Assembly: GCF_000938255.1 (NCBI RefSeq)
Contig: NZ_JYMR01000005.1
Location: 124,001 to 188,000 of the forward strand
Origin: Bradyrhizobium sp. LTSP849
GTDB taxonomy: Bacteria > Pseudomonadota > Alphaproteobacteria > Rhizobiales > Xanthobacteraceae
Direction of reading: 5' to 3'
Length of the DNA stretch: 64,000 bases
Shown here: in pieces, positions 20,118 to 35,439 of the stretch
Position numbering within the stretch: the first letter of the stretch is position 1
Layout: the number at the start of each line of letters is the position of its first letter
The notes under the pieces: generated by a model
Database searches by the model: none
What the model was told of the DNA's origin: nothing
The model's input: the letters and a program-made list of their open reading frames with translations, nothing else
Program-made: the position numbers and the translations under genes

Positions 20118-20161
20118 GCGTTTTCAAGCGAAGTGGGTACCGGTTCGCGTCAAGAAAACGC
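20118..20161. repeat. dispersed intergenic palindromic repeat
   Basis: GCGTTTTC at 20118-20125 is mirrored by GAAAACGC at 20154-20161, around 'AAGCGAAGTGGGTACCGG' and 'TTCGCGT'. This sequence type is, from memory, a very common intergenic repeat in bradyrhizobia and relatives. It starts 2 bases after a stop codon and lies between two convergent genes. Confidence 0.65.
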
Positions 20162-20164
20162 GTC

Positions 20165-20198
20165 AAAAAAGGAATTAGAGCCCCGGAACGCGGCTCTA
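20165..20198 (-). terminator. intrinsic terminator closing the minus-strand peptide operon
   Basis: On the minus strand TAGAGCC, a nine-base loop, GGCTCTA, then ATTCC and six T residues follow one another. The first TAG is the stop codon of the last permease gene, so the hairpin starts at the end of translation. It marks the downstream end of the block that begins at 33950. Confidence 0.65.
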
Positions 20199-21083
20199 GC
20201 GCTGGCGCGGGTCGAGGGCGTCGCGCAGGCCGTCGCCGAGCAGGTTCAACGAGAGCACGACGAGGAAGATCGCGAGCCCCGGCCAGATCGCCATCCACGG
20301 CGCCTGGGTCAGGAAGCGTTGCGCCGCGTTGAGCATGCTGCCCCAGGACGGCGCCGGCGGCTGCTGGCCGAGGCCGAGGAACGACAGCGCGGCTTCGGCG
20401 ATGATGGCGGCCGCAATCGACAGCGTGGCCTGCACCAGCAGCGCGGGCATGATGTTCGGCAGGATGTGCGAAAACGCGATCCGCCAGCCGGGGTTGCCAA
20501 GCGCGCGCGCGGCCTCGACATAGTCTTCGGACTTGACGTTCAGCACCTGGCCGCGGGTCAGGCGAATGAAGATCGGCGTGGCCGAGATGCCGATCGCGAT
20601 CATCGCGTTGGTAAGGCTCGGGCCGAGGAACGCCGCCAGTGCAATCGCCAGGATCAGGAACGGGCAGGCCAGCATCGCATCGGTGATCCGGCTGATCAGC
20701 GCGTCGGTGAATCCGCCGCGATAGCCGGCGAGCAGGCCGAGCGGCACGCCGATGCCGAGCGCGATCGCGACCGAGATCAGGCCCGCAAGCAGCGAGGCCC
20801 GAGCGCCGTAGATGACGCGGCTGAGGATGTCGCGGCCGAGCTCGTCGGTGCCGAACCAGTGCGACATGGTTGGCGGCTTGCGCACCAGGCTCCAGCTCGT
20901 CGCAATGGGGTCGTAGGGCACGATGAGCGGGGCCAGCAGCGCAAGAGCGATGAACGTCGTGATTGCGACAAGGCCGAACACAGCAGCCTTGCGCTTGAAC
21001 AACCGCCGCCGCGCGCGGCGTGCCGGGCTGTCGAGCTCGTAGGCTTGCGTGACGGGGCTTACGGGTAGCGCGGCGTCGGTCAT
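20196..21083 (-). CDS. dipeptide/oligopeptide ABC transporter permease (DppC type), system 2
   Basis: A 295-residue inner-membrane permease read from the ATG at 21083; an upstream ATG at 21134 would overlap the previous gene by 47 bases. About six membrane helices are visible. It has 'DELGRDILSRVIYGARASLL', typical of DppC/OppC proteins, and the ATPase-docking EAA loop 'YVEAARALGNPGWRIAFSHI'. It pairs with the DppB-type gene ending 4 bases upstream. It is the last gene of the block, with its stop codon inside the terminator stem. Confidence 0.9.
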   Translation of the reverse strand: MTDAALPVSPVTQAYELDSPARRARRRLFKRKAAVFGLVAITTFIALALLAPLIVPYDPIATSWSLVRKPPTMSHWFGTDELGRDILSRVIYGARASLLAGLISVAIALGIGVPLGLLAGYRGGFTDALISRITDAMLACPFLILAIALAAFLGPSLTNAMIAIGISATPIFIRLTRGQVLNVKSEDYVEAARALGNPGWRIAFSHILPNIMPALLVQATLSIAAAIIAEAALSFLGLGQQPPAPSWGSMLNAAQRFLTQAPWMAIWPGLAIFLVVLSLNLLGDGLRDALDPRQR

Positions 21084-21087
21084 GGCG

Positions 21088-22029
21088 CTACCCCCGCAGT
21101 CGCGGATTGACGAGGATATAGGCGACGTCTGCAACGAGATTCAGGGTGATGTAGACGGTGGCGGTCACCAGCACGACGCCTTGCACGACCGCGTAGTCGC
21201 GGTTGAAGACGGCGTCCACGATCAGCTTGCCGAAGCCGGGAATGGAGAAGATCTGCTCGGTCAGCACCGCGCCCGACAGCAGCGTGCCGAGCTCGAGCGC
21301 GCCGAGCGTGATGATGGGTGTCAGCGCATTGCGCATGGCATGCTTGAGGATCACGGAACGCTCGGAGAGGCCCTTCGCGCGCGCCGTGCGGACGTAATCG
21401 CTCTCCAGCACTTGCAGCATGGCGCTGCGCGTATGCCGCATCAGGATCGCGGAAATCGCGTTGCCGAGCACGAAGGCCGGCATGATGGTGGCAGCCAGGC
21501 TCGCGCGCCAGTTCTCGCTGAGCGGCACATAGCCTGAGGCCGGCAGCCAGCCGAGCTCGATCGAGAACAGGAAGATCATCAGGATCCCGAGCCAGAAGTT
21601 CGGCGTCGAGATGCCCCATAGCGCGAACAGATTAGCGCCATAGTCCCAGACCGTGCCCCTCTTCACCGCGGAAACGATGCCGGCGGGAATGCCGATCAGG
21701 AAGGCGATCAGGATCGCCATCGAGCCGAGCTGGAGCGTCACCGGCAGCTTCTGTGCGATCAGCTCGCGCACCGGCATCTTGCTGCGCAGTGACTCCCCGA
21801 AATTGCCGGTCAGGACCCCCTTGAGCCAATAGACGTATTGCACGGGGATCGGCTGATCGAGCTTGTACTGCTGACGGATCTGTTCGATCACGGCGGGATC
21901 GCGTTCCTCTCCGGCCATGACCAGCGCGGGATCTCCCGGCAGCAATTGCTGGAGCGAAAAGATCAGCACCGACACGAAGAACAGCGTCGGTATGATCTGC
22001 GCGATGCGGCGAGCGAGGAAGTTCAGCAT
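21088..22029 (-). CDS. dipeptide/oligopeptide ABC transporter permease (DppB type), system 2
   Basis: A 313-residue permease with the DppB/OppB start 'MLNFLARRIAQIIPTLFFVS', the 'QLLPGDPALVMAGEE' segment that opens the periplasmic loop, and the EAA loop 'YVRTARAKGLSERSVILKHA'. About six membrane helices are visible. It follows its binding-protein gene by 31 bases. Together with the DppC-type partner it would form the translocation pore of the second importer. Confidence 0.9.
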   Translation of the reverse strand: MLNFLARRIAQIIPTLFFVSVLIFSLQQLLPGDPALVMAGEERDPAVIEQIRQQYKLDQPIPVQYVYWLKGVLTGNFGESLRSKMPVRELIAQKLPVTLQLGSMAILIAFLIGIPAGIVSAVKRGTVWDYGANLFALWGISTPNFWLGILMIFLFSIELGWLPASGYVPLSENWRASLAATIMPAFVLGNAISAILMRHTRSAMLQVLESDYVRTARAKGLSERSVILKHAMRNALTPIITLGALELGTLLSGAVLTEQIFSIPGFGKLIVDAVFNRDYAVVQGVVLVTATVYITLNLVADVAYILVNPRLRG

Positions 22030-22060
22030 GGCGCAGCTCGCGTCCTGGGCGCAGCCGCGA

Positions 22061-23581
22061 TCACTTGAACTTCAACCCGACCACGCGCACCAGCCCGTCG
22101 GGCATCTGCTTGTAGCCCTCCAGCTTGGTCGTGTGCGCGATCAGCAGCGTGCGGTGATAGATGTAGATGATCGGCAGGTCGGCGAGCAGGATCTTGGTCA
22201 GCTTTTCGTAGATCGCCTTGCGCTCATCAAAGCCCGCGACCGCCCTCGCTTCTTCCATCAGCTTGTCGGCTTCCGGGTTCGCGTAGCCGCCATCGTTCTG
22301 CGGCGCCTTGCTGCGCATGAAGATGTAGGAATTGCCGTCGGGATCGATGCGGCCGCTCCAGTTGATCTGGAACACCTGGAACTCGCCGGCCTGGGACTGC
22401 TTGAAGGTAGTCGCGAATTCGACGGCGCGAATCTTGATGTCGAAGCCGGCCTCCGCGGCCATGGACTGCACGACCTGGGCGACGGCCTCGTACTCGGTGC
22501 CCTTCGGGACCATGTAGTCGACGGTCACGGGAAGGCTGACGCCGGCTTCCTTCAAAAGCGCCTTGGCCTTGGCGATGTCGCGACCCTGAACGGGGAAGGA
22601 CTTCTGATAATAGGGATGCGTCGGGCTGACCCACTGATTGCCGGCCGTGAACTCGCCGTTGAACACGACCTGGTTGATGGCTTCGCGATCGATGGAGAGG
22701 TCAAGCGCCTGGCGCACCTTCGCCGACTGGCTCAGCGGCCCCTTGGCCTTGTCGTTGCCGATGTTGATGGTCAGGCCGAGATAGCCGAGCTCGGGGGCTG
22801 TCGACAGCACCAGCTTGGGATCGGCGCGGACGTCCTTGATGTCGGTGGCGAGCACGCGCTCGATCAGGTCGAGGCCGCCGGACTTGAGATTCGCCAGTCG
22901 CACCGTCGAGTCAACGATCGGCAGGAACACGACGCGGTCGATATGGACGTTGTCCTTGTTCCAGTAATCGGCGAATTTCTCGAAGACCATGCGGTCCTGC
23001 TGGATGCGCTCGACGAATTTATACGGGCCGGCGCAGACCGGATGGAGGCCGAACTTGTCGCCGGCTTCCTTGGCGGCCTTCGGCGACACCATCATGCCGG
23101 AGCGGTCGGTAAGCTGGGCGATCAGCGGCGAGTAGGGCGTCTTCAGCACCAGCTTGATGGTCAGGGGATCGACAACCTCGACATGATCGACGCTGGCGAG
23201 CTCCGACTTCCGGAACGAGGTCGGCAGCGTCATGTGACGCTCGATCGAGAATTTTGCGGCCTCCGCATCCAGTGGTTCGCCGTCATGGAATTTGACGTTC
23301 GGCCGCAGCTTGATCGTCATCTCCTTGCCGTCGGCCGAGGTCTGGTAGGACAGCGCGAGCTGCGGCACGACGTTGAGCTTCTCGTCGATGTCGAACAGCT
23401 TGTCGCAGAAGGCGGAGAACACGATGCGGCCGACATAGGTGCGGCCGATGCTGGGATCGAGGATGTCTGGGTCCTCGGCGATGCCGATGCGTAGCGTGGT
23501 CTGGGCTTGGGCTGTGCCCGCGAGCGACGTCAGCAATGCCGACGCCAGAAATGCCAAACGCACAAAACTCATCGTTCTCAA
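22061..23581 (-). CDS. peptide-type ABC transporter substrate-binding protein (SBP_bac_5), system 2
   Basis: A 506-residue family 5 extracellular binding protein with a Sec leader ending near 'SLAGTAQAQ'. Family marks are 'LRIGIAEDPDILDPSIGRTY', 'LALSYQTSADGKEMTIKLRP', 'VKFHDGEPLDAEAAKFSIER', and 'ALDLSIDREAINQVVFNGEF' further on. Members of this family bind di- and oligopeptides, glutathione, opines, nickel chelates and other compounds, so ligand identity needs context. Here the operon also encodes a gamma-glutamyltransferase, which makes gamma-glutamyl compounds a reasonable guess. Unlike the other system, its gene lies after its ATPases in transcription order. Confidence 0.9.
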   Translation of the reverse strand: MRTMSFVRLAFLASALLTSLAGTAQAQTTLRIGIAEDPDILDPSIGRTYVGRIVFSAFCDKLFDIDEKLNVVPQLALSYQTSADGKEMTIKLRPNVKFHDGEPLDAEAAKFSIERHMTLPTSFRKSELASVDHVEVVDPLTIKLVLKTPYSPLIAQLTDRSGMMVSPKAAKEAGDKFGLHPVCAGPYKFVERIQQDRMVFEKFADYWNKDNVHIDRVVFLPIVDSTVRLANLKSGGLDLIERVLATDIKDVRADPKLVLSTAPELGYLGLTINIGNDKAKGPLSQSAKVRQALDLSIDREAINQVVFNGEFTAGNQWVSPTHPYYQKSFPVQGRDIAKAKALLKEAGVSLPVTVDYMVPKGTEYEAVAQVVQSMAAEAGFDIKIRAVEFATTFKQSQAGEFQVFQINWSGRIDPDGNSYIFMRSKAPQNDGGYANPEADKLMEEARAVAGFDERKAIYEKLTKILLADLPIIYIYHRTLLIAHTTKLEGYKQMPDGLVRVVGLKFK

Positions 23582-23595
23582 CCTCTGTTTGACGG

Positions 23596-24696
23596 CTAGA
23601 CCGGGTCGGGCCTCAATGAACTAACCCCGCCGCCGCTCGCTGCTTCCAGGCTGCCGCTGAAGGCGGCGACCAATTTTTCAAGGACCGGCGAGAAGCCGCC
23701 GTCCATTGGGACGATCGCCTCGGACGACGGCAGTTCCGATGTTCGGTGGCAGGCCGTTGCATGTCCGATGCCATCCGGCACGAGCTGTGGCATTTCGCTG
23801 CGGCAGCGGTCGACGACGTAGGGGCAGCGGGTGTGGAAGCGGCATCCCGGCGGCGGGTTCAGCGCGCTGGGGATCTCGCCCTGAAGCACAATCCGGCTGC
23901 GCTTTGCCCGTGGTTTAGGCACCGGGATCGCGGACAGCAGCGCGCGGCTATAGGGGTGGCGCGGGGCGGCGAAAAGCGCATCCGCTTCCGCCGTCTCGAC
24001 GATCTGGCCGAGATTCATCACCGCGACGTGGTCGGCGATGTGCTTGACCACGGCCAGATCATGCGAGACGAAAATGTAGGCGAGGCCGAGCCGGTCCTGA
24101 AGCTCGCGCAGCAGGTTGAGGATTTGCGAGCGGATCGAGACGTCGAGCGCGGAGACCGGCTCGTCGCAGATAATCAGCTTCGGCTCGACCGCGAGCGCGC
24201 GGGCAATTGCGATGCGCTGGCGCTGGCCGCCGGAGAATTCGTGCGGATAGCGCCGCGCCAGCCGCGGCTCCAGCCCAACCAGCCGCAATATCTCCTCGAC
24301 GCGCTCGCGTCGCCGGGCAGGCGGCACGAGATTGTGCAGCGCCAGCGGCTCGGTCAGGATCTGGCCGACGGTCATGCGCGGATTGAGCGAAGCGTAGGGA
24401 TCCTGGAAGATAATCTGCGCCTCGCGGCGGAAGCCGCGCAGCGCGGCGGCGTCGAGAGCGAGAAGGTCGCGGCCTTCGAAGCGGATTGCGCCTGCATCCG
24501 GCTCGATCAACCGTAGCACCAGGCGGCTGACGGTGGATTTGCCGCAGCCGGATTCGCCGACCAGCGCCAGCGTCTTGCCGGCGTCGAGCGAGAAGGAGAC
24601 GCCATCGACTGCTTTGACATGTGCGAGCGCGCGACCGAAGATCGAGCGCTCGGCGACGAAATGCTTGACTAGGCCTTCGACCTCGAGCAGCGCCAT
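23596..24696 (-). CDS. peptide ABC transporter ATP-binding protein (DppF type), system 2
   Basis: A 366-residue ATPase read from the ATG at 24696, which overlaps the stop codon of the preceding ATPase gene (TGATG). It has Walker A '[13 protein letters not shown]', the Q-loop in 'IIFQDPYASLNPRMTVGQIL', signature 'FSGGQRQRIAIARALA', Walker B 'LIICDEPVSALD' and the H-loop 'FVSHDLAVVKHI'. The C-terminal oligopeptide/dipeptide extension carries the Cys pattern 'PPGCRFHTRCPYVVDRCRSE', which in relatives binds an iron-sulfur cluster. It forms a heterodimer with the DppD-type partner. A tail of about 40 residues beyond the usual end is unusual. Confidence 0.92.
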   Translation of the reverse strand: MALLEVEGLVKHFVAERSIFGRALAHVKAVDGVSFSLDAGKTLALVGESGCGKSTVSRLVLRLIEPDAGAIRFEGRDLLALDAAALRGFRREAQIIFQDPYASLNPRMTVGQILTEPLALHNLVPPARRRERVEEILRLVGLEPRLARRYPHEFSGGQRQRIAIARALAVEPKLIICDEPVSALDVSIRSQILNLLRELQDRLGLAYIFVSHDLAVVKHIADHVAVMNLGQIVETAEADALFAAPRHPYSRALLSAIPVPKPRAKRSRIVLQGEIPSALNPPPGCRFHTRCPYVVDRCRSEMPQLVPDGIGHATACHRTSELPSSEAIVPMDGGFSPVLEKLVAAFSGSLEAASGGGVSSLRPDPV

Positions 24697-25685
24697 CACG
24701 ACACCAGAAGTTCGAGCGGCGCGCGGATGCAGCGCGAGAGGTGGCCGGGGCTGACTTCCACGAGCGGCGGCGGCGCCTTGGTGCAGGCGTCCAGCACGAA
24801 CGGGCAGCGCGCGGCGAAGCGGCAGCCGGCGGGCGGCTGCATCATGTTCGGGACCATGCCCTCGATCGTCGCGAGCTGATCGGCGCGATGGTCGAGCCGT
24901 GGGATCGATCCGAGCAGGCCGACCGTATAGGGATGCTGCGGCATGGAGAACAATTCATCCACAGGCGCGCGCTCGACGATTTCGCCCGCGTACATCACAG
25001 CGACTTCGTCGCAGACCTCGGCAACCACGCCGAGATCGTGGGTGATCAGGATGATGGCGGCACCGCTCGCCGCCTTCAATTCCCGCATCAGCTCCAGTAT
25101 CTGCGCCTGCAAGGTGACGTCGAGCGCGGTGGTCGGTTCGTCGGCGATCAGGAGGCGTGGGTCGCAGGCGAGCGCCATCGCGATCATCACACGCTGGCGC
25201 ATGCCGCCGGAGAGCTTGTGCGGATATTCGTCGATCCGCCGCTCGGGCGAGGGAATGTGAACGCGGCGCAGCAGGTCGATCGCACGGTCCCGCGCGCTGC
25301 GCCGGGAGCCGCCGCGGTGACGCAGGATCGTCTCGGTGATCTGGTCGCCGATGGTGAGGCTCGGATTGAGCGACGTCATCGGTTCCTGGAAGATCATTGC
25401 CAGGCGGTTGCCGCGCAAGTCGCGCAGCGTCTGGTCCGACGTCTTCAACAGGTCGAAACCGTCGAAGCGGATTGCGCCGGATATTTCCGCGCTCTGCTTC
25501 GGCAGCAATCCCATGATCGCGAGTGACGTCACGCTCTTGCCGCAACCGGATTCGCCAACGAGCCCGAGCGTTGCGCCATTGGCGACGCTGAGATCGACGC
25601 TGTCGACCGCATGCGTGATGCGGCCGTCATCGCCGTGGAAGCGAATGCGGAGATCCCTGATCTCGATGAGGGGGCTAGCGCTCAT
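24696..25685 (-). CDS. peptide ABC transporter ATP-binding protein (DppD type), system 2
   Basis: A 329-residue ATPase. Walker A is '[19 protein letters not shown]', signature '[16 protein letters not shown]' (the GGMRQR form marks the DppD/OppD branch), Walker B '[20 protein letters not shown]', and the C-terminal Cys motif '[17 protein letters not shown]'. It overlaps the DUF1028 gene upstream and the DppF-type gene downstream by a few bases each. That tight coupling ties DUF1028 to the transporter. Confidence 0.92.
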
Positions 25686-26392
25686 GACTGCCTTGCACGC
25701 GCCGCGGCGATGCTGGCGTCGATGACGCCGCGATCGGTATTGCCGGCGGGATTGCGCCGCGTCGGAAGCGAGCCGCGGAAGTGCACCCAGAGCTCGTGAC
25801 TGACCCGCTCGAGCCGCTCGAGTTCGCCGAGCGGATCGGGATGATCATCGGCGCGAACGTCCAGCGCGGGCCACTCCTCCTCGCCGTGGATCAGGAGCGC
25901 CGCCGACTGCTTGCCGCGCTTGTCGCCGCCGGCGGCTTCGCCGGCGCGCATGGCCGCGAGCAGGCGGCGCGGGAAGGGCAGGCTGTCATTGGCGAGGTAG
26001 GTCTTTGCCGTCTCGTCGAGGACGTCCGAGCCTGCGAGCATATTGCCGGCGATCGAGAAGCCGCTGCCTGCGATGTGCCCGCACCAGTCGACGCAATCGC
26101 GGCCCGTATGCGCTGCGATCGCGCCATTTGCATCCATGATGTGGATCTGCCGGTTTTCGCGCCCGTCGTCGGTCGCGAGCAGTGTGGCGAGCACGTCGTG
26201 CGCGTTGAGGCCCTCGCGCAACAGCTTGATGCCGTCGATGCCGTAATAGGGATTGACGAAGGCTTGCGTGGCGATCGCGCCGAGGCCAGCGGCGATGTAA
26301 GGCACGCGTGCTCCGACGGCGAAGAAGCGGGTCGCAACGGCGATGCCGAACTGGCCGGTGGCAGGATCGCGGGCGATGATCGACCAGGTCAT
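25682..26392 (-). CDS. DUF1028 family protein, Ntn-hydrolase-like
   Basis: A 236-residue cytoplasmic protein read from the ATG at 26392, which gives the family start 'MTWSIIARDPATGQFGIAVA'. It continues 'GARVPYIAAGLGAIATQAFV' and 'YGIDGIKLLREG', then 'RQIHIMDANGAIAAHTG' and 'GSGFSIAGNMLAG'. DUF1028 (PF06267) is, as I recall, grouped with Ntn hydrolases, which use an N-terminal Thr/Ser/Cys nucleophile; Thr2 here would serve after Met removal. It sits between the gamma-glutamyltransferase gene (10 bases) and an ATPase gene (overlap). A role in hydrolysing an imported peptide or amide is likely but untested. Confidence 0.85.
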   Translation of the reverse strand: MTWSIIARDPATGQFGIAVATRFFAVGARVPYIAAGLGAIATQAFVNPYYGIDGIKLLREGLNAHDVLATLLATDDGRENRQIHIMDANGAIAAHTGRDCVDWCGHIAGSGFSIAGNMLAGSDVLDETAKTYLANDSLPFPRRLLAAMRAGEAAGGDKRGKQSAALLIHGEEEWPALDVRADDHPDPLGELERLERVSHELWVHFRGSLPTRRNPAGNTDRGVIDASIAAARARQS

Positions 26393-26402
26393 ATGTTGTC
26401 CA

Positions 26403-28208
26403 TCAGCGCCCCGCGGCGTAGCCCTGCATGCCGCGCGGATTGGCGGCGGCACGGCGGCGCACGCCGACACGCGAGGCCGCGGTGAGGCGGCCTTCGGACC
26501 AGTCCGGTCCGACCTCGACGATATGCCCGCGCTCGCGAAGGTTCTCGATCGTCGCCTCCGGCACGCGGTTCTCGATCACGAGCACGCCGGGGCGCGAGGT
26601 GCGCGGCCAGAACGAGATCGGGAAATGCTCGGAATGCCAGGCCGGCGCGTCGATCGCCTCCTGGAGATTGAGGTTGCAGTGGACGTGGCGCAGGAAGAAT
26701 TGCGTGATCCACTGATCCTGCTGGTCGCCGCCGGGCGAACCCCAGGCGAGGTACGGCTCGCCGTCGCGCAGCGCCATGGTCGGCGACAGCGTGGTGCGCG
26801 GCCGCTTGCCGGGCGCGAGCGAGCTCGGTTGGTTCTCCTCCAGATCGAACATCTGCGCGCGGCTGCCGAGGCAGAAGCCGAGCTCGGGAATGACAGGCGA
26901 GGATTGCAACCAGCCGCCGGACGGTGTCGACGAGATCATGTTGCCGGCCTTGTCGATGATGTCGAAATGCACGGTGTCGCCGCGTACTTCGCCGAAGCGG
27001 CCCACCGTCGGTTCACCGGCACCGAGCGCGCCAACGGCCTCGCGCTGGCCTTCGGCGCGGCGCAGCTTGACCACGCCGCCAAAGCCCTCGATCGCGCCGG
27101 GCCGGAGATCGAGCGAGGCCTTGTCGGTGACGAGCTTGCGGCGTTCGTCGTTGTAAGCATCCGACAGCAACGTCGCGATCGGGATCTCGCTGAATTTGGG
27201 ATCGCCGTAGAATTTCTCGCGATCGGCGAAGGCGAGCTTGGCGCATTCGATCTGGAGATGGATGAACTCAGGCCCGGTCGGGTCGAGCCCGTCGAGCGCA
27301 AAGCCCTTCAGCAAAGCGAGCTGCTGCAACGTCACCGGGCCCTGGCTCCAGACGCCCGCCTTGCAGACGGTGTAGCGGCCATAATCGTAGGTGAGCGGCG
27401 CTTCGATGGTCGGTTGCCAGCGCGCCATGTCGTCGGCAGAGAGCACGCCGCGATGCGGCGAGCCGCTGACGTCCATCACCTCCTGAGTGCGGCAGAACTT
27501 GTCGATCGCTTCGGCGACGAAACCGTGCGACCAGGCCTTCCGCGCGCGCTCGATCTCGGCATCGCGGCCGCCGCCGCCGCTCTCGGCCTCGCTCAGGATA
27601 CGAGCGTAGGTCGCCGCCAGCGTCTTGTTGGTGAAGAGCGTGCCGGGCCGCGGCACTTCGCCATTCGGCAGGTAGACTGCGGCCGAGGTCGGCCAGTGCT
27701 TGCGGAACAGTTGCTCGACGGTCTGGATCGTCGCGCAGGCACGCTCGACCAGCGGATGGCCGTCGCGCGCATAGGAGATCGCGGGCTCCAGCACGTCGCG
27801 CAGGCGCAGCGTACCGTAGTCGCGCAGCAGCATCATCCAGGATTCGAATGTACCAGGGACGCAGGCCGCGAGCAGGCCGGTGCCGGGCACCATGTCGAGG
27901 CCTTCGCTCCTGTAGTGGGCGATGGTGGCGCGCGCCGGCGCCGGGCCCTGGCCGCAGATCACCTCGGTGCGACCGCGCTTGACGTCATGGACGATGATGG
28001 GAACATCGCCGCCGGGGCCGTTGAGGTGCGGCTCGACCACCTGGAGCGTGAAGGCGGTGGCGACGCCGGCGTCGAAGGCATTGCCGCCTTTTTCCAGCGT
28101 GGCCATGCCGACGGCGGTCGCGATCCAGTGCGTGGTGGCGACCACGCCGAACGTGCCTTCGATTTCGGGGCGCGTCGTGAAGGGATCGGGATTGACTTTG
28201 CTGGCCAT
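26403..28208 (-). CDS. gamma-glutamyltransferase family protein, no signal peptide
   Basis: A 601-residue Ntn-hydrolase precursor of the gamma-glutamyltranspeptidase family. It has the N-terminal 'GVVATTHWIATAVGMATLEK' and 'GGNAFDAGVATAFTLQVVEP', then 'GPGGD'. The presumed autocleavage nucleophile is T412 in 'RGDTVHFDIIDKAGNMIS', where classical enzymes have T-T-H-(F/Y)-S-V-x-D. The small subunit has 'RPRTTLSPTMALRDGEPYLA' and 'GSPGGDQQDQWITQFFL'. The canonical glycine pair and carboxylate-binding residues are only partly recognisable. Unlike classical periplasmic enzymes it starts 'MASKVNPDPF' with no export signal, so it probably acts in the cytoplasm after uptake. Cephalosporin-acylase-like relatives exist, so the true substrate is open. 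Confidence 0.88.
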   Translation of the reverse strand: MASKVNPDPFTTRPEIEGTFGVVATTHWIATAVGMATLEKGGNAFDAGVATAFTLQVVEPHLNGPGGDVPIIVHDVKRGRTEVICGQGPAPARATIAHYRSEGLDMVPGTGLLAACVPGTFESWMMLLRDYGTLRLRDVLEPAISYARDGHPLVERACATIQTVEQLFRKHWPTSAAVYLPNGEVPRPGTLFTNKTLAATYARILSEAESGGGGRDAEIERARKAWSHGFVAEAIDKFCRTQEVMDVSGSPHRGVLSADDMARWQPTIEAPLTYDYGRYTVCKAGVWSQGPVTLQQLALLKGFALDGLDPTGPEFIHLQIECAKLAFADREKFYGDPKFSEIPIATLLSDAYNDERRKLVTDKASLDLRPGAIEGFGGVVKLRRAEGQREAVGALGAGEPTVGRFGEVRGDTVHFDIIDKAGNMISSTPSGGWLQSSPVIPELGFCLGSRAQMFDLEENQPSSLAPGKRPRTTLSPTMALRDGEPYLAWGSPGGDQQDQWITQFFLRHVHCNLNLQEAIDAPAWHSEHFPISFWPRTSRPGVLVIENRVPEATIENLRERGHIVEVGPDWSEGRLTAASRVGVRRRAAANPRGMQGYAAGR

Positions 28209-28295
28209 GGAAATTCGCTACCTTATTTGTCGCGCGCGCAATTGATCACAGGCAATGCCTGGCTGCCAATGCGTGGGCCGCATGGCACGCGCGCG

Positions 28296-29285
28296 TCACG
28301 CCGGGACCGGCGCGGTGTTAACCGCGTGGCAGGCGACGCCGTCAATCAGTTCCGGAGCCTCCTTGCGGCAGAGATCGAACGCCAGCGGGCAACGCGGATT
28401 GAAGGCGCAGCCGGGCGGTGGGTTGATCGGGTTCGGAATCTCGCCCTTCACCGGAATGCGCTGGCGGCCACTCATGGCCAGATCTGGCACGGCGCCTAGC
28501 AGCATCTTGGTGTAGGGCATACGCGGATGGGAGAACAGCTCGCGTCCTTCCGCGATCTCGACAATGCGGCCGAGATACATCACGCCGACACGGCTCGCCA
28601 TGTGGCGGACCACGGCGAGGTTGTGGCTGATGAACATGTAGGTCAGGCCGAACTTGTCCTGGAGGTCGCGCATCAGATTGAGGATCTGCGCCTGCACGGA
28701 GACGTCGAGCGCCGAGGTCGGCTCGTCGCAGACGATGAATTCGGCGTCGGAGGCAAGCGCCCGCGCAATCGCGATGCGCTGGCGCTGGCCGCCGGAGAAT
28801 TCATGCGGAAACTTCAACCGGTCGTCGGGATGCAGGCCGACGAGGCTGAGCAGTTCGCCGACGCGGGCCCGGATGTCGCGCTCGCCCTGGATCAGGTCGA
28901 AGGCACGGATCGGCTCGGCGATGATGGCGTCGACGCGGAAATGCGGGTTCAGGCTCGCATAGGGATCCTGGAAGATCATCTGGATGCGGCGGCGTAGTTT
29001 TCGGCGCGCTTGGGCCTGCCGCGGGTCGGTCATCGAAACGCCGTCAATCAATACGCTGCCGGAGCTTGGCGGCAGCAGGCCGACGACCATCCGCGCCACT
29101 GTGGTCTTGCCCGAACCGGATTCGCCGACCAGCGCAAAAGTCTCGCCCTTCCTGATGTCGAAGGTGACGGTGTCGACCGCCTTGAGGTATTCGAGCTGGC
29201 CGCCTTCGAGCACGCGGTTGAGCCATGGCTTCGAGACGTCGAAGACGCGGCGCAGGTTCTTGGCCTCGACGAAGGGCGCGCTCAT
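28296..29285 (-). CDS. peptide ABC transporter ATP-binding protein (DppF type), system 1
   Basis: A 329-residue ATPase with Walker A 'GESGSGKTTVARMVVGLLPP', 'IFQDPYASLNPHFRVDAIIA', signature 'FSGGQRQRIAIARALA', Walker B 'FIVCDEPTSALDVSVQAQIL' and H-loop 'FISHNLAVVRHM'. The C-terminal motif 'PPGCAFNPRCPLAFDLCRKE' is the oligopeptide-type extension. It overlaps its DppD-type partner by four bases. The gap of 87 bases to the gamma-glutamyltransferase gene is the second largest in the block. Confidence 0.92.
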   Translation of the reverse strand: MSAPFVEAKNLRRVFDVSKPWLNRVLEGGQLEYLKAVDTVTFDIRKGETFALVGESGSGKTTVARMVVGLLPPSSGSVLIDGVSMTDPRQAQARRKLRRRIQMIFQDPYASLNPHFRVDAIIAEPIRAFDLIQGERDIRARVGELLSLVGLHPDDRLKFPHEFSGGQRQRIAIARALASDAEFIVCDEPTSALDVSVQAQILNLMRDLQDKFGLTYMFISHNLAVVRHMASRVGVMYLGRIVEIAEGRELFSHPRMPYTKMLLGAVPDLAMSGRQRIPVKGEIPNPINPPPGCAFNPRCPLAFDLCRKEAPELIDGVACHAVNTAPVPA

Positions 29286-30268
29286 GCCGCGCTCTCCGCC
29301 GGCACGCCGTCATAGAGATGGCAGGCGACCGATTGCGCGCCGCGCGGCTGCGGCTCGGGCCGGTCGACACGGCAACGATCGAACGCGGAGGCACAGCGCG
29401 GATTGAACGAGCAGCCGCGCGGGATTGCCGACAGGCGCGGCATGGAGCCCGGGATTTGCACCAGCCGCTTGTCCTCACCTGCAAGCGTTGGGATGGCGCC
29501 CATTAATCCCTTCGCATAGGGGTGCAGCGGGTTCTTGACGACGTCCTGCACCGGTCCGATCTCGGCGACGCGGCCGGCATACATCACCGCGACGCGGTCG
29601 GAGGTCTCGGCGATCACGCCCATGTCGTGGGTCACCAGCATCACTGCAGTGCCGTGGTCGCGGCCGAGCCGCTTGATCAGCGTGATGATCTGCGCCTGCA
29701 CGGAGACGTCGAGCGCGGTGGTCGGCTCGTCCGCGATGATCAGCTCGGGCTCGGCGCAGATCGCCAGCGCAATCACCACGCGCTGGCGCATGCCGCCGGA
29801 GAATTCGTGGGGATAGCCGTCGATGCGCTTTTCGGGCGCGGGGATGCCGACTTCGGCAAGAAGGTCGATGGCGCGGCGGCGCGCGGCGGTTTCGGAGAGG
29901 TTCAGGTGGGTTCTGATCGTCTCCACGATCTGGTCACCGATCTTGTACAGCGGATTGAGCGAGGTGAGGGGATCCTGGAAGATCATGCCGATGCGCTTGC
30001 CGCGGACGCGGCGCATCTCCTCCGGCGGCAGATTGTCGATGCGCAGACCCGACAGGCGGATCTCGCCGCCGGAGATGCGGCCGGGCGGATCGATCAGGCC
30101 GATCACCGCGAGCCCGGTGACGGATTTGCCGGCGCCGGATTCACCGACTACGCCGAGCACCTCGCCCTTGGCGATGTCGAAGGAGACGCCGTCGATGGCG
30201 CGCAGTGTGCCGCGGCGCGAGGCGAACTCGACCTGAAGATTGCGGACGGAGAGAACGGGTTCGGTCAT
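29282..30268 (-). CDS. peptide ABC transporter ATP-binding protein (DppD type), system 1
   Basis: A 328-residue ATPase read from the ATG at 30268 (MTEPVLSVRNLQVEF); a longer frame to 30325 would run back over the preceding permease gene. Walker A is 'GESGAGKSVTGLAVIGLIDP', signature '[16 protein letters not shown]', Walker B '[20 protein letters not shown]'. The C-terminal Cys motif 'PRGCSFNPRCASAFDRC' is present. It would energise the first importer with its DppF-type partner. Confidence 0.92.
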   Translation of the reverse strand: MTEPVLSVRNLQVEFASRRGTLRAIDGVSFDIAKGEVLGVVGESGAGKSVTGLAVIGLIDPPGRISGGEIRLSGLRIDNLPPEEMRRVRGKRIGMIFQDPLTSLNPLYKIGDQIVETIRTHLNLSETAARRRAIDLLAEVGIPAPEKRIDGYPHEFSGGMRQRVVIALAICAEPELIIADEPTTALDVSVQAQIITLIKRLGRDHGTAVMLVTHDMGVIAETSDRVAVMYAGRVAEIGPVQDVVKNPLHPYAKGLMGAIPTLAGEDKRLVQIPGSMPRLSAIPRGCSFNPRCASAFDRCRVDRPEPQPRGAQSVACHLYDGVPAESAA

Positions 30269-30281
30269 GAACGCTGGATAC

Positions 30282-31250
30282 TCATCGGAGTTTCGGGTTG
30301 AGCGCGTCGCGCAGCCAATCGCCAAGCAGGTTGATCGACAGGATCAGGGCCGCGAGCGCGATTCCGGGGAATGCGACGATCCACCATTCGCCTGCGAACA
30401 GATAGCCGTTGCCGATGCGGATCAGCGTGCCGAGCGAGGGCATGGTCTCGGGCATGCCCGAGCCGAGGAAGGATAGCGTCGCCTCGGTGATGATCGCGAG
30501 CGCGAGGTTGATGGTAGCGATCACGAGGATTGGCCCCATCGTGTTCGGCAGCACGTGGCGCAGCATGATCACGGGGGCGGGCAGGCCGATCAATTGCGCG
30601 GCTGCGACGTAATCCTTGTTCTTCTCGACCAGCACCGAACCACGCACCGTGCGCGCGTACTGCACCCAAAAACTCAGCCCGATGGCGAAGACCAGGACCG
30701 CCAACATGCTCATCTCGTCGAGCTTGTTGCCGAAGACCGATTTGGCGATGCCGTTGATCAAGAGCGCAATCAGGATGGCTGGAAAGGAAAGCTGCACGTC
30801 GGCGATACGCATGATCAGCCCGTCGACGGCGCCGCCGAAATAGCCGGCCGTCAACCCAAGCATGATGCCGAGCGCGCCAGACAAGACGACGCCGAGGACG
30901 CCGACAAGCAGCGAGATGCGCAGGCCGTAGAGGATAGCCGACAGCACGTCGCGGCCCTGCTCGTCGGTGCCGAGCAGAAACGGGCTCTGGCCGTCGGCGG
31001 TCCAGAGCGGGGAGATGCGCGAATTCATCAGCTGGAGCTGCGCCGGATCGAACGGATTTTGTACCGACAACACCGAGGCGAAGATCGCGATCAGGAAGAA
31101 CAGCAGCGTCACCGCAGCCGCGATCATGGTGATTTTGGAGCGGCGGAAGGAATAGAACAGGTCGCTGTCGAGCGCGCGTTTGAACCAGCCCGGTGGAGCG
31201 GCGCGCGAGCCGCGGTCTTCGACCTTGTGCGGGACGACGGCTTCGCTCAT
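30282..31250 (-). CDS. dipeptide/oligopeptide ABC transporter permease (DppC type), system 1
   Basis: A 322-residue permease starting at the ATG at 31250, one base past the stop of the DppB-type gene. The N-terminal cytoplasmic stretch, then 'FYSFRRSKITMIAAAVTLLF', 'TDEQGRDVLSAILYGLRISL' and the EAA loop 'YVAAAQLIGLPAPVIMLRHV' place it in the DppC/OppC group. It shares this plan with the system 2 copy but differs clearly in sequence, so the two importers are not a recent duplication. Confidence 0.9.
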   Translation of the reverse strand: MSEAVVPHKVEDRGSRAAPPGWFKRALDSDLFYSFRRSKITMIAAAVTLLFFLIAIFASVLSVQNPFDPAQLQLMNSRISPLWTADGQSPFLLGTDEQGRDVLSAILYGLRISLLVGVLGVVLSGALGIMLGLTAGYFGGAVDGLIMRIADVQLSFPAILIALLINGIAKSVFGNKLDEMSMLAVLVFAIGLSFWVQYARTVRGSVLVEKNKDYVAAAQLIGLPAPVIMLRHVLPNTMGPILVIATINLALAIITEATLSFLGSGMPETMPSLGTLIRIGNGYLFAGEWWIVAFPGIALAALILSINLLGDWLRDALNPKLR

Positions 31251-31251
31251 C

Positions 31252-32232
31252 TCAGTGCGCCCCGCTGACCGTCGAGCGCAGCCGCGGATCGACGATGGTG
31301 TAGAGGATATCAACCACGAGATTGATGGTGACGAAGATCAGGGACACCATCATCAGATAGGCCGCCATGATCGGGATATCGACGTTCTGAACGGCCTGCA
31401 CGAACAGCAGCCCCATGCCCGGCCACTGGAATACGGTCTCGGTGATGATTGCGAAAGCAATGACCGAGCCAAATTGCAGGCCCGCCACAGTAATCACGGG
31501 AACCAGCGTGTTGCGCAGCGCGTGGCCGAAATGGATCGCCCGTGTGGTGAGCCCGCGGGCGCGGGCGAAGCGGATATAGTCGGTCCGCATGACCTCGAGC
31601 ATCTCCGCGCGGACGAGCCGCATGATCAGAGTCATCTGGAACAGGCCGAGCGTGATCGAGGGCATGATCAGCGCTTTCAACCCTGACCAAGTCAGGAGCC
31701 CAGTCGTCCACCAGCCGATATGCACCACATCGCCCCGCCCGAACGAGGGCAGCCAGCCGAGTGTCACCGAGAACAGGTAGATCATGAGGATCCCGATCAG
31801 GAAGGTCGGCAGCGAGATGCCGATCAGCGAGACGGCCTGGAATACATGCGCGAGCCAGCTGTCACGGCGAAGCGCCGAATAGACCCCCATCAGGATGCCG
31901 CTGACCATCGCGAAGATGGTGGCGCAGATGGCGAGCTCCAGCGTTGCCGGCATCCGCTCCATCAGGAGATTGCTGACGGGCAGACGGAACTGGTAGGAGA
32001 TGCCGAACTTGAACTGCGCGGCGTTGCCGAGGTAGTGGCCGAACTGCACGATCACGGGATCGTCGAGGCCGAGCGACTTGCGGATTGCGGCGCGTTCGGC
32101 GCCCGACGTATCCATCCCGACCATCTGGTTCACTGGATCGCCGGCGAAGCGGAACATCGAGAACGAGATGATTCCGACGGCGATCATGACACCGATGGCC
32201 TGGATGGCCCGGCGCAGTGTGAAAGCGAGCAT
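31252..32232 (-). CDS. dipeptide/oligopeptide ABC transporter permease (DppB type), system 1
   Basis: A 326-residue permease with the start 'MLAFTLRRAIQAIGVMIAVG', 'FRFAGDPVNQMVGMDTSGAE', and EAA loop 'YIRFARARGLTTRAIHFGHA'. Six membrane helices are visible. It follows the binding-protein gene by 116 bases that contain a strong hairpin, so its expression may be set lower than that of the binding protein. Confidence 0.9.
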   Translation of the reverse strand: MLAFTLRRAIQAIGVMIAVGIISFSMFRFAGDPVNQMVGMDTSGAERAAIRKSLGLDDPVIVQFGHYLGNAAQFKFGISYQFRLPVSNLLMERMPATLELAICATIFAMVSGILMGVYSALRRDSWLAHVFQAVSLIGISLPTFLIGILMIYLFSVTLGWLPSFGRGDVVHIGWWTTGLLTWSGLKALIMPSITLGLFQMTLIMRLVRAEMLEVMRTDYIRFARARGLTTRAIHFGHALRNTLVPVITVAGLQFGSVIAFAIITETVFQWPGMGLLFVQAVQNVDIPIMAAYLMMVSLIFVTINLVVDILYTIVDPRLRSTVSGAH

Positions 32233-32302
32233 CTGTTCCTTTCACATATCTTCAGGGGCGCGCATCATCGCGTTCGCCCGAAACGGCAAATCCTTAAACA
32301 GC

Positions 32303-32332
32303 AAGTCCCGGAAGCCGAGGCTTCCGGGACTT
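32303..32332. other. strong stem-loop between binding protein and permease genes
   Basis: AAGTCCCGGAAGCC and its exact reverse complement are separated by only GA, a 14-bp nearly loopless palindrome (in practice a smaller loop opens). It lies 16 bases after the stop codon of the binding protein on the minus strand and has no T-run after it. Hairpins at this position in ABC operons often protect the abundant binding-protein mRNA and allow partial read-through. Confidence 0.7.
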
Positions 32333-32348
32333 CACAACTCGTCGACAC

Positions 32349-33950
32349 CTACTCGTCCTGCTTGGTCGCCCAATAGAGCAGGACCTGGTTGTCCGCGCGC
32401 TGAGTCAGTTTCACCTTCTTCGACACGCCCCAAGCGAGCGCTTGCTGATGCAGCGGGACATAGGCCCAGTCCTTGATCGAGATGTCCCAGGCCTGCTTGA
32501 TCAGCTGATCGCGCTTGGCCGGATCGGATTCCACGAGGACCTTGTCGGCGATCTCGTCGAACTGCTTGTTGCAATAGCCGGCGAGATTGGCCTCGCCGCG
32601 GTTCGGATCCTTGGGATCGTCCCGGCAGCCCATGATGTCGTGCAGCACGTTATGGGCGTCGAGTGTATCCGGGGTCCAGCCGAGCATGAACAGCGAAGTT
32701 TTGTAGCCGCCGGGCTTCAGCACCTTGGCGAAATACAGCGCCTTGGGTTGCGCCAGCAGCTCCACTTTGATGCCGATACGGGCGAGCATTCCGACGACGG
32801 CCTGACAGATCGCGGCGTCATTGACGTAGCGATCGTTCGGGCAGTCCATCGTGACTTCGAAACCCTCGGGATAGCCGGCGTCCGCCAGGAGCTTCTTGGC
32901 GGCGTCGGGGTCGAACTTCGGCCGGGTGAAGTCCTTCGACAGCGAATAGAGCTCCGGCGCAACCATCAGCGCGGACGGTGTCGAGAGGCCGCGCATGACG
33001 CGGTTCTTGATCAGCTCGATGTCGATCGCCCGGTAGACGGCCTCGCGGACGCGAACGTCCTTGAATGGGTTCTTGCCCTTGACGTTGGAGTACAACAGCT
33101 CGTCGCGCTGCTGATCCATGCCGACGAAGATGGTGCGGAGTTCGGGTCCCGTCAGCACGGTGGCATTGGGGCTCGAATTGACACGTTGAATATCCTGGAC
33201 CGGAACCGGCTCGATCACGTCGACCTCGCCCGACAGCAGGGCCGCGACACGCGTGGCCGGGGATGCGATCGGCGTGAAGATGATCTCCTTCAGATTATGT
33301 TCCGGCTTGCGCCACCAGTTCGGATTGGCCTTGAAGACGGTCTTCACGCCCGGCTGATGGCTCTCGATCATGAAGGGGCCGGTGCCGTTTTCATGGAGCG
33401 AGGCGTAGCTCGGGGTCGTGGCGGCGGCCGGTGTCGGCGCCACCGCATCGTTCGCCTCTGCCCATTTCTTGTCCATGATGTACCAGGTCGCCCAGAGCGC
33501 CGTCAGGATGGGATTGGGCGAGGTCAGGACGAAATCGACGGTGTAATCGTCGATCTTGACCGCCTTGGCGTCGGCGGGAACGCGGCTCTGGAAATTCGAG
33601 CCTTTCGCCCGCACGCGCTCGGCCGAGAACACGACGTCGTCAGCGGTGAAGGGGTCGCCATTGTGGAATTTCACGTCCTTGCGCAGGTGAAAGCGCCAAC
33701 GTGTCGGCTCCGGTGTCTCCCAGCTCTCGGCAAGCCCCGGGATGATCTTCAGGTCCTTGTCGCGGGCGACCAAGCCCTCATAGACATGACCGAGATGCGC
33801 ACTGGTGGTCGACTCGTTCAGTGTGTAGGGGTCGAGCGACTTCAGCTCACCCTGGTTGGCGTAGCGCAGCGTCTGGCTCGACGCCGGCGAGACCGCCATC
33901 GCAAGCACACCGGCGAGCGTCGCCGCAAACAGACTTCGTCCGACTGACAT
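32349..33950 (-). CDS. peptide-type ABC transporter substrate-binding protein (SBP_bac_5), system 1
   Basis: A 533-residue family 5 binding protein with a Sec leader (MSVGRSLFAATLAGVLAMAV, cleavage near SPASSQ). 'LRYANQGELKSLDPYTLNES', 'GLAESWETPEPTRWRFHLRK' and 'VKFHNGDPFTADDVVFSAER' are family marks. It is the first gene of the minus-strand block, so the main promoter should lie in 33951-34335. It is only distantly like the system 2 protein, which suggests different ligands. Confidence 0.92.
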   Translation of the reverse strand: MSVGRSLFAATLAGVLAMAVSPASSQTLRYANQGELKSLDPYTLNESTTSAHLGHVYEGLVARDKDLKIIPGLAESWETPEPTRWRFHLRKDVKFHNGDPFTADDVVFSAERVRAKGSNFQSRVPADAKAVKIDDYTVDFVLTSPNPILTALWATWYIMDKKWAEANDAVAPTPAAATTPSYASLHENGTGPFMIESHQPGVKTVFKANPNWWRKPEHNLKEIIFTPIASPATRVAALLSGEVDVIEPVPVQDIQRVNSSPNATVLTGPELRTIFVGMDQQRDELLYSNVKGKNPFKDVRVREAVYRAIDIELIKNRVMRGLSTPSALMVAPELYSLSKDFTRPKFDPDAAKKLLADAGYPEGFEVTMDCPNDRYVNDAAICQAVVGMLARIGIKVELLAQPKALYFAKVLKPGGYKTSLFMLGWTPDTLDAHNVLHDIMGCRDDPKDPNRGEANLAGYCNKQFDEIADKVLVESDPAKRDQLIKQAWDISIKDWAYVPLHQQALAWGVSKKVKLTQRADNQVLLYWATKQDE

Positions 33951-35393: not shown

Positions 35394-35439
35394 CGAGAAG
35401 CGCCAACCAAGGCGCCCGTCAAATATTCGGGAGGGAACT

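What the first reader, a model, noticed from the sequence alone, without database searches (positions are those of the whole stretch)
20196..33950. Two complete peptide importers wrapped around a gamma-glutamyltransferase and a DUF1028 protein
Twelve consecutive minus-strand genes are packed with mostly 0-90 base gaps and end at one terminator. The order is binding protein, DppB, DppC, DppD, DppF, gamma-glutamyltransferase, DUF1028, DppD, DppF, binding protein, DppB, DppC. Each importer has all five parts, but the gene order differs and the sequences are not close, so this is not a simple tandem duplication. Placing two Ntn-type hydrolases between them suggests a scavenging system that imports two classes of gamma-glutamyl (or similarly protected) peptides and opens them inside the cell.
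Basis: partly seen in the sequence, partly recalled or inferred. Interest (0 to 1): 0.8.

Follow-up and report, generated by a model that had tools for sequence, protein, structure and literature searches.

The report
Import-and-split operon, perhaps for D-glutamate
Bradyrhizobium soil bacteria share a twelve-gene block that pairs two peptide-type importers with two predicted amide-splitting enzymes; one of these belongs to the gamma-glutamyltransferase family but has replaced that enzyme's glutamate-binding residues, and in related bacteria it often sits beside D-glutamate-degrading genes, so the block likely takes up and splits D-glutamate-containing compounds rather than glutathione-like ones.

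Summary
In detail: twelve minus-strand genes encode two complete Dpp/Opp importers around a PF01019 ("GGT") protein and DUF1028. The full order recurs in 50 of 64 related loci with long enough flanks. The interpretation needs correction. (1) The "GGT" is 56.5% identical to a solved structure that I identify as Streptomyces LmbA2991, an Ntn hydrolase shown to cleave a C-C bond; it is 27% identical to E. coli GGT. The six residues that hold L-glutamate in E. coli GGT are replaced (two conservatively), and an arginine (96 of 96 sequences) sits on the amine side. The genome has a separate canonical GGT. (2) Importer 2 travels with the enzyme across families; importer 1 was seen with it only in Bradyrhizobium-type loci. 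(3) In Alphaproteobacteria the GGT-like gene lies within 2 kb of dgcN (D-glutamate catabolism) in 15 of 50 genomes that have both (about 0.1 expected); a small canonical-GGT control gives 0 of 9. I infer a stereo-inverted relative of GGT that releases D-glutamate from imported amides. This is untested; a C-C or oxalyl hydrolase remains the main rival, and the window's own genome lacks dgcN.

The parts
32349..33950 (-). A1: substrate-binding protein of importer 1 (SBP_bac_5), signal peptide by eye
   Evidence: the DppA Asp408 position is D here but S or G in six other Bradyrhizobium-type proteins aligned
31252..32232 (-). B1: DppB-type permease of importer 1
30282..31250 (-). C1: DppC-type permease of importer 1 (ORF list gives 31313; start set by codon score)
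29282..30268 (-). D1: DppD-type ATPase of importer 1 (ORF list gives 30325)
   Evidence: Walker A and signature motifs
28296..29285 (-). F1: DppF-type ATPase of importer 1
26403..28208 (-). GGT-family Ntn hydrolase of LmbA2991 type; predicted processing between D411 and T412 (nucleophile); no signal peptide by eye
   Evidence: 56.5% identical to 6j3a
25682..26392 (-). DUF1028 protein (ORF list gives 26470; likely start 26392), SPO2555-type Ntn family, Thr2 predicted to be exposed by Met removal
   Evidence: Thr at this position in 53 of 53 rows printed
24696..25685 (-). D2: DppD-type ATPase of importer 2
23596..24696 (-). F2: DppF-type ATPase of importer 2
22061..23572 (-). A2: substrate-binding protein of importer 2, family motif WSGRxDPDGN in place of the DppA Asp408 region
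21088..22029 (-). B2: DppB-type permease of importer 2
20196..21083 (-). C2: DppC-type permease of importer 2 (start uncertain: 21134 in the ORF list, 21083 or 21002 in other readings)
20158..20200 (-). possible intrinsic terminator: short palindrome overlapping the C2 stop, then T-rich run
   Evidence: seen by eye; not listed by the scan

Best explanation
The twelve genes are a conserved Bradyrhizobium block whose core, importer 2 with a GGT-family hydrolase and DUF1028, likely imports amide-linked D-glutamate compounds (probably gamma-D-glutamyl peptides from peptidoglycan) and would split them in the cytoplasm, while importer 1 was seen beside the enzyme only in Bradyrhizobium-type loci. 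Proposed steps: (a) importer 2 (A2-B2-C2-D2-F2) brings in the conjugate [component set shown, ligand inferred]; (b) the GGT-like precursor cuts itself between Asp411 and Thr412, and Thr412 becomes the nucleophile [D-T pair and oxyanion glycines shown, processing inferred from LmbA2991]; (c) the acyl group is bound with its carboxylate on the side where canonical GGT holds the amine (Arg450 replaces Gln430, Met453 replaces Asp433, Gln87 replaces Arg114), as would suit a D-configured glutamyl group [substitutions shown, binding mode inferred]; (d) D-glutamate is released and enters central metabolism, by DgcN-DgcA in the relatives that have them, by an unidentified route in Bradyrhizobium [inferred]; (e) DUF1028 cuts a second amide of the same cargo [inferred from linkage and fold family only]; (f) importer 1 adds a second, probably different, cargo [inferred].
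For: Enzyme class: best solved relatives 6j3a/6j3i, E about 1e-197; the TCHLDVVDRW motif and D420/T421 numbering equal those published for LmbA2991 (PMC5519988, passages). Residues: E. coli contacts are R114/S462/S463 (carboxylate) and N411/Q430/D433 (amine) (PMC6769717 passage); in 96 LmbA-type sequences position 114 is Q in 95, 430 is R in 96, 433 is M in 92 and never D, 463 is T in 96, 462 is T in 87 and S in 9. Canonical GGTs can use D-glutamine as donor (PMC8062742 passage), so D-gamma-glutamyl chemistry is within reach of the fold. Linkage: in the same 385 Alphaproteobacteria genomes the enzyme is in 76, DgcN in 97, both in 50; within 2 kb in 15 of 50, from 11 families, about 0.09 expected by random placement; co-occurrence odds ratio 10.7 (not corrected for phylogeny). 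All 15 adjacent DgcN matches are over the family cut-off; one DgcA neighbour was tested and passes its cut-off. Control: a canonical GGT in 24 of 385 genomes, 9 with DgcN, none within 2 kb (small: 0 of 9 has probability 0.04 at the rate 15/50). Importer 2 with the enzyme recurs in Rhizobium, Tritonibacter, Sulfitobacter, Paracoccus, Qingshengfaniella, Pseudochrobactrum and the actinomycete Nonomuraea and in 12 of 63 class-draw loci examined. In two Bradyrhizobium loci (L040, L061) a D-amino-acid-dehydrogenase-like gene (best model below its cut-off; L061 member tested) lies divergently beside the enzyme. A Thermomicrobium locus has an SBP/permease set with DUF1028 beside annotated amino-sugar and anhydromuramic-acid genes.
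Against: The only activity assayed in this family, as far as I read, is C-C cleavage releasing oxalate (PMC5519988), and its authors state that LmbA/Ant6 lack gamma-glutamyl activity (PMC6085292; whether D donors were tried is not said in what I read). Canonical GGT already accepts D-glutamine with its usual residues, so the charge swap is not required for a D substrate; any acyl group with a carboxylate there would fit. The window's genome and the other Bradyrhizobium genome tested lack DgcN. None of 63 class-draw loci has importer 2 and DgcN together, so the two contexts are tied only through the shared enzyme family. In 35 of the 50 genomes with both, they are not within 2 kb. Other neighbours are common: TctC-type binding proteins, sugar-acid dehydratases, a TPP enzyme; 38 of 94 survey loci carry none of my labels. 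In a Comamonadaceae plasmid, DUF1028+importer 2 lies beside an annotated oxalate/formate antiporter. No ligand, activity or transcript was tested.
Confidence: 0.35

Rival explanations
1. The enzyme is an oxalyl/C-C hydrolase as its assayed relatives are: the operon imports a compound with a terminal alpha-keto-acid or N-oxalyl group, and the enzyme releases oxalate through an oxalyl-threonine intermediate.
For: LmbA2991 and Ant6 cleave a pyrroline alpha-keto-acid side chain with oxalic acid as co-product (PMC5519988); the window enzyme shares all ten diagnostic positions and 56.5% identity with 6j3a. DUF1028+importer 2 beside an annotated oxalate/formate antiporter; CoA-transferase III genes near some loci.
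Against: LmbA2991 worked at about 37% of Ant6 and its own role 'remains unclear' (PMC5519988), so this may be a side activity. It does not explain linkage to DgcN-DgcA. The two neighbouring TPP enzymes tested score best as acetolactate-synthase-like, and no oxalyl-CoA decarboxylase model is among the 25 best shown.
Confidence: 0.2
2. The enzyme removes a small N-acyl group (acetyl or similar) from glutamate, i.e. it supplies the deacylation after DgcN and DgcA have made N-acetyl-glutamate, and importer 2 brings in N-acylated amino acids.
For: DgcN (N-acetyltransferase) and DgcA (N-acetyl-D-Glu racemase) create a need for a deacylase; a two-carbon acyl-threonine fits the oxalyl precedent; M20-type or annotated amidohydrolase genes accompany importer 1 relatives, and annotated acetylornithine deacetylase genes accompany DUF1028 elsewhere.
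Against: 47 of 97 genomes with DgcN lack this enzyme at the threshold used; the 12 class-draw loci with importer 2 have no DgcN; the two Bradyrhizobium genomes tested lack DgcN.
Confidence: 0.15
3. One reading: it scavenges ordinary L-gamma-glutamyl peptides such as glutathione.
For: Close relatives are named gamma-glutamyltransferase or glutathione hydrolase; among NCBIfam models GsiB (glutathione) is the best for both binding proteins; E. coli has iaaA, recalled as an Ntn hydrolase, beside gsiABCD.
Against: Residues holding L-glutamate are replaced; scores below the GGT and GsiB cut-offs; a canonical GGT, 50% identical to E. coli, is encoded elsewhere; LmbA/Ant6 reported inactive on gamma-glutamyl substrates (PMC6085292).
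Confidence: 0.07
4. The neighbours share only regulation or history; the two importers and two hydrolases act on unrelated cargo.
For: Partial versions occur: enzyme alone at the same site (L061), with importer 2 A-B-C only (L040), with importer 1 only (L047, L051, L058, L059). Importer 1 relatives live without the enzyme.
Against: Importer 2 with the enzyme is found from an actinomycete to Alphaproteobacteria and on several branches of the enzyme tree.
Confidence: 0.2

Closest known systems
LmbA2991 / LmbA / Ant6 (gamma-GT homologues of actinomycetes; 6j3a, 6j3i by my identification)
   Same: 56.5% identity to 6j3a, same ten diagnostic residues, same Asp-Thr processing pair
   Different: LmbA and Ant6 belong to antibiotic gene clusters and no importer is mentioned in the passages I read (the term ABC transporter occurs 0 times); here the gene sits in an importer operon and its substrate is untested
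E. coli glutathione hydrolase Ggt and the window genome's own canonical GGT (L118)
   Same: PF01019 family, threonine nucleophile, oxyanion glycines
   Different: 27% identity to each; the six residues holding L-glutamate are replaced; no signal peptide by eye
E. coli iaaA-gsiABCD
   Same: A hydrolase gene (recalled as Ntn type) beside a Dpp/Opp-type importer for a gamma-glutamyl peptide
   Different: Different family, one importer, fused ATPase (recalled); both binding proteins here are below the GsiB cut-off
DgcN-DgcA D-glutamate catabolism
   Same: Genes within 2 kb of the same enzyme family in 15 of 50 Alphaproteobacteria genomes with both
   Different: DgcN absent from the window's genome; no GGT-family step found in the passages and listings seen
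DUF1028 / SPO2555 Ntn subfamily (2imh)
   Same: Pfam match 254.9 bits; solved relative at E 4e-28; 2imh is classed as an Ntn hydrolase with N-terminal Thr, uncharacterised (PMC9140057 passage)
   Different: Here Thr directly follows the start Met and the gene sits in an importer operon; function unknown in both
Dpp/Opp peptide importers
   Same: Both sets have all five components
   Different: A2-type proteins carry WSGRxDPDGN where DppA has Asp408; importer 1 proteins do not conserve that Asp

Membership tests
Canonical gamma-glutamyltransferase | Thr nucleophile and oxyanion glycines | tested here: met
   T412, G493, G494 align with T391, G483, G484
Canonical gamma-glutamyltransferase | L-glutamate carboxylate contacts (R114, S462, S463) | tested here: not met
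   Q87, T472, T473; the Ser-to-Thr changes are conservative
Canonical gamma-glutamyltransferase | L-glutamate amine contacts (N411, Q430, D433) | tested here: not met
   G432, R450, M453
Canonical gamma-glutamyltransferase | score above NCBIfam TIGR00066 cut-off | tested here: not met
   272.7 against 357.85 bits
LmbA-like gamma-GT homologues | sequence as close as members are to each other; Asp-Thr processing pair | tested here: met
   56.5% to 6j3a; LmbA2991-LmbA is 48.4% in PMC5519988; D411-T412 present; 6j3a nests inside the family tree
LmbA-like gamma-GT homologues | C-C bond cleavage releasing oxalate | not testable with these tools
   no assay possible
DUF1028 (PF06267) | full-length Pfam match | tested here: met
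   profile 1-193 of 193, 254.9 bits
Dpp/Opp-type ABC importer (both sets) | SBP_bac_5, two BPD_transp_1 permeases, two ABC ATPases with oligo_HPY | tested here: met
DppA-type dipeptide binding | Asp408 (recalled as the amine ligand) conserved | tested here: not met
   A2: absent in 13 of 13 A2-type proteins aligned; A1: D in the window, S or G in six other Bradyrhizobium-type proteins, S/N/N/G in four relatives elsewhere; E. coli GsiB lacks it too
GsiABCD glutathione importer | GsiB cut-off | tested here: not met
   A1 147.4 and A2 197.4 against 594 bits
DgcN-DgcA pathway in this genome | DgcN gene present | tested here: not met
   no match to NF041892

The most novel reading that the evidence does not exclude
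LmbA2991-type 'GGTs' are stereo-inverted gamma-glutamyl hydrolases: by moving the arginine from the carboxylate side to the amine side of the pocket they came to hold D-glutamate, and they form, with importer 2, DUF1028 or DgcN-DgcA, an undescribed system for feeding on D-glutamate amides such as peptidoglycan stem peptides. The oxalate-releasing antibiotic enzymes LmbA and Ant6 would then be recruits from this catabolic family.
Probability: 0.27. Interest if true: 0.75.

Novelty: new variant of a known kind. Interest (0 to 1): 0.55.

Why it matters
The native role of LmbA2991 is stated as unclear in print (PMC5519988). This work gives its family, present in 115 of 117 Bradyrhizobium genomes drawn and 76 of 385 Alphaproteobacteria genomes drawn, a conserved importer partner and a physical link to D-glutamate catabolism, which turns the question into a few simple assays. 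It also warns that relatives named 'gamma-glutamyltransferase' or 'glutathione hydrolase' in databases may be misnamed.

Tried and rejected
Canonical glutathione scavenging: rejected as the leading idea after the residue test and the finding of a separate canonical GGT. Recent tandem duplication of one importer: rejected, 25-52% identity. Oxalate pathway as leading idea: the oxlT neighbour was suggestive, but no oxalyl-CoA decarboxylase model was among the 25 best for the two neighbouring TPP enzymes tested, and DgcN linkage was far stronger. LptD and DUF924 neighbours (c17, c32) were set aside as chance. TauE/SafE exporters recur and stay unexplained. Pfam counts of neighbours: around importer-2 or DUF1028 loci, GntR/FCD regulators led (8 of 75 proteins scanned); around loci without these labels nothing stood out (at most 4 of 97). 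The 75 were chosen from 156 listed, the 97 from 185 listed. Papers on DUF1028 by that name or Pfam number: none. Papers linking DgcN/DUF1611 with gamma-glutamyl enzymes: none relevant in three searches of this open-access library. 6j3a/6j3i in papers: none. Structure prediction, fold search and transcript data were not used.


Full report
Observation. The window lies in an 8.57 Mb genome; the nearest named relatives of its GGT-like protein are Bradyrhizobium. The twelve minus-strand genes are present as described. Likely starts remove the larger apparent overlaps: DUF1028 starts at 26392, ten bases after the GGT-like stop. Both binding proteins begin with signal peptides by eye; the GGT-like protein and DUF1028 do not. 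The two importers share only 25-52% identity, part by part. No tRNA and no Rfam match at gathering scores was found in the window.

Conservation. Of these 80 loci, 50 have all twelve genes in order; 64 loci have enough sequence on both sides, so 50 of 64. By the titles, 48 of the 50 are Bradyrhizobium; the others are L014 (titled Frankia) and L060 (an alphaproteobacterial MAG). The rest are informative: importer 1 with the enzyme only (L047, L051, L058, L059), the same plus DUF1028 (L032, L053, L063), no D2/F2 (L065), enzyme with A2-B2-C2 (L040), enzyme alone at the same chromosomal site (L061), and more distant loci with the enzyme alone. The enzyme gene itself is in 115 of 117 Bradyrhizobium genomes drawn; the two without it are 4.3 and 4.4 Mb assemblies, one of them 67% complete.

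What the 'GGT' is. Its best solved relatives are 6j3a and 6j3i (E about 1e-197), far ahead of any other entry. The chain carries TCHLDVVDRW from residue 421 after D420, exactly the small-subunit start and processing pair published for Streptomyces lincolnensis LmbA2991 (PMC5519988; passages and the discussion section read); 6j3i has Ala at that Thr. I therefore take 6j3a to be LmbA2991 or a near-identical protein; no paper naming the entry was found. Identity to the window enzyme is 56.5% over 584 positions, against 27% to E. coli GGT. In PMC5519988 LmbA2991 and Ant6 cleave a C-C bond, oxalic acid is the co-product, and the intrinsic role of LmbA2991 'remains unclear'.

Residue test. In E. coli GGT the carboxyl group of bound L-glutamate contacts Arg114, Ser462 and Ser463, and the amine contacts Asn411, Gln430 and Asp433 (PMC6769717, passage). 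The window has Gln87, Thr472, Thr473 and Gly432, Arg450, Met453. Across 96 sequences (94 survey loci, the window, 6j3a) the replacements are nearly fixed: Gln at 114 in 95, Arg at 430 in 96, Met at 433 in 92 and never Asp; Ser is kept at 462 in 9. The genome has six PF01019 match stretches in about five genes; one (L118) is 49.9% identical to E. coli GGT with these contacts kept, Gln430 as Glu. So a positive charge has left the carboxylate side and one has appeared on the amine side. That would suit a D-configured glutamyl group, but it is not required for one: canonical GGT can use D-glutamine as donor (PMC8062742, passage), and any acyl group with a carboxylate placed there would fit.

Which importer belongs to it. 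In Tritonibacter, Sulfitobacter, Paracoccus, two Rhizobium, Qingshengfaniella, Pseudochrobactrum and Nonomuraea (eight loci, L099-L106) the importer beside the enzyme matches importer 2; in the seven measured, A2 41-52%, B2 55-67%, C2 51-72%, and L106 is similar. Gene orders vary. DUF1028 is present in five of the eight, a GntR/FCD-type regulator in all eight, a TauE/SafE exporter in four. In the class draw, 12 of 63 loci have importer 2, 9 have DUF1028, and none has importer 1. Importer 1 and the enzyme occur in one stretch in 61 loci, all of them among the 80. Five importer 1 relatives elsewhere have no enzyme gene in the fetched stretch: Shinella has an M20 gene (Pfam), Pseudosulfitobacter an annotated M20 aminoacylase, Agrobacterium an annotated amidohydrolase, Nitratireductor none of these, Microvirga has no annotation. 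A2-type proteins share WSGRxDPDGN where DppA has its Asp408 (13 of 13 aligned; 11 of 12 in the class draw), so ordinary dipeptide recognition is unlikely; the role of Asp408 is recalled.

Link to D-glutamate. In the same draw of 385 Alphaproteobacteria genomes, the enzyme is in 76 (81 places) and DgcN in 97. Both are in 50 (odds ratio 10.7, Fisher p 1.6e-17, not corrected for shared ancestry). In 15 of the 50 they lie within 2 kb, from 11 families, where random placement predicts about 0.09 (a mean genome of 3.8 Mb was assumed). The 15 adjacent DgcN matches are over the family cut-off; tested singly, one DgcN neighbour scores 545.9 against 480 and one DgcA neighbour 499.1 against 400. DgcA neighbours of the other loci were assigned by sequence clustering. 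As a control, the genome's canonical GGT finds relatives in 24 of the 385 genomes; nine have DgcN, none within 2 kb. The control is small: 0 of 9 has probability 0.04 at a rate of 15/50. The tree puts importer-2, DUF1028 and DgcN contexts on several interleaved branches of one family, with 6j3a beside the Nonomuraea importer-2 protein (many inner supports are low). Further hints: a D-amino-acid-dehydrogenase-like gene divergent from the enzyme in L061 (best model below cut-off) and, by clustering, in L040; hydantoinase/oxoprolinase-type genes within six genes of four loci (clustering; one pair tested); DUF1028 with an SBP and permeases beside annotated NagA and anhydro-N-acetylmuramic acid kinase genes in Thermomicrobium.

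DUF1028. Its solved relative 2imh (SPO2555) is classed as an Ntn hydrolase with N-terminal Thr and no characterised function (PMC9140057, passages). Thr follows the start position in 53 of 53 rows printed, directly after Met in 50 (four genes appear twice). Removal of Met would expose the Thr; this is inferred. Elsewhere DUF1028 sits near RidA and annotated acetylornithine deacetylase genes.

Results against. The window's genome and a second Bradyrhizobium lack DgcN; none of 63 class-draw loci joins importer 2 and DgcN; other contexts (TctC, TPP enzyme, glucarate dehydratase, amidase) are common; the assayed reaction in the family yields oxalate. Hence confidence of about one third in the D-glutamate mechanism, but high confidence (about 0.9) in the anatomy, the enzyme class and importer 2 as the enzyme's usual partner importer.

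Verdict. Its enzyme is probably misnamed, its two importers have different histories, and its cargo is open. The D-glutamate link is the new, testable part; I found no report of it in three library searches, which cover only open-access papers. Papers were seen as passages, apart from the discussion section of PMC5519988; the others named only in search listings were not opened.

Noticed in passing
window 15130-17724, 17721-18110, 18107-19360: dCache-HAMP-GAF histidine kinase, a small gene, and a response regulator fused to an adenylate/guanylate cyclase domain, convergent with the operon end.
   Followed up: no
window 35332-36990: Wax ester synthase/diacylglycerol acyltransferase on the plus strand just beyond the operon start.
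   Followed up: no
L014: Record titled Frankia sp. RB7 carries the full operon at 96% enzyme identity; probably a mislabelled or mixed assembly.
   Followed up: no
L100, L104, L106, L145, L103: TauE/SafE-type exporter within two genes of the enzyme in four Alphaproteobacteria loci and in Nonomuraea; exported anion unknown.
   Followed up: partly
L125 12433-13728: Annotated oxalate/formate antiporter beside DUF1028+importer 2 in a Comamonadaceae plasmid; the enzyme itself is on another plasmid of that strain.
   Followed up: partly
L066, L067, L077, L082: TPP enzyme near the GGT-like gene (immediately upstream in L066 and L067); the two tested (L066, L077) score best as acetolactate-synthase-like.
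   Followed up: partly
L110, L150, L157, L159, L165, L180, L181, L184: A MATE transporter cluster member lies directly downstream of the enzyme in eight survey loci, four of them with DgcN; the one tested is nearest the DinF model, below its cut-off.
   Followed up: no
L132, L135, L136: RidA, DUF1028 and annotated argE genes close together in Burkholderia, Pantoea and Aminobacter plasmids.
   Followed up: no
plasmid collection: DUF1028 matches occur on 110 Klebsiella plasmid records and DgcN matches on 20; their neighbourhoods were not looked at.
   Followed up: no
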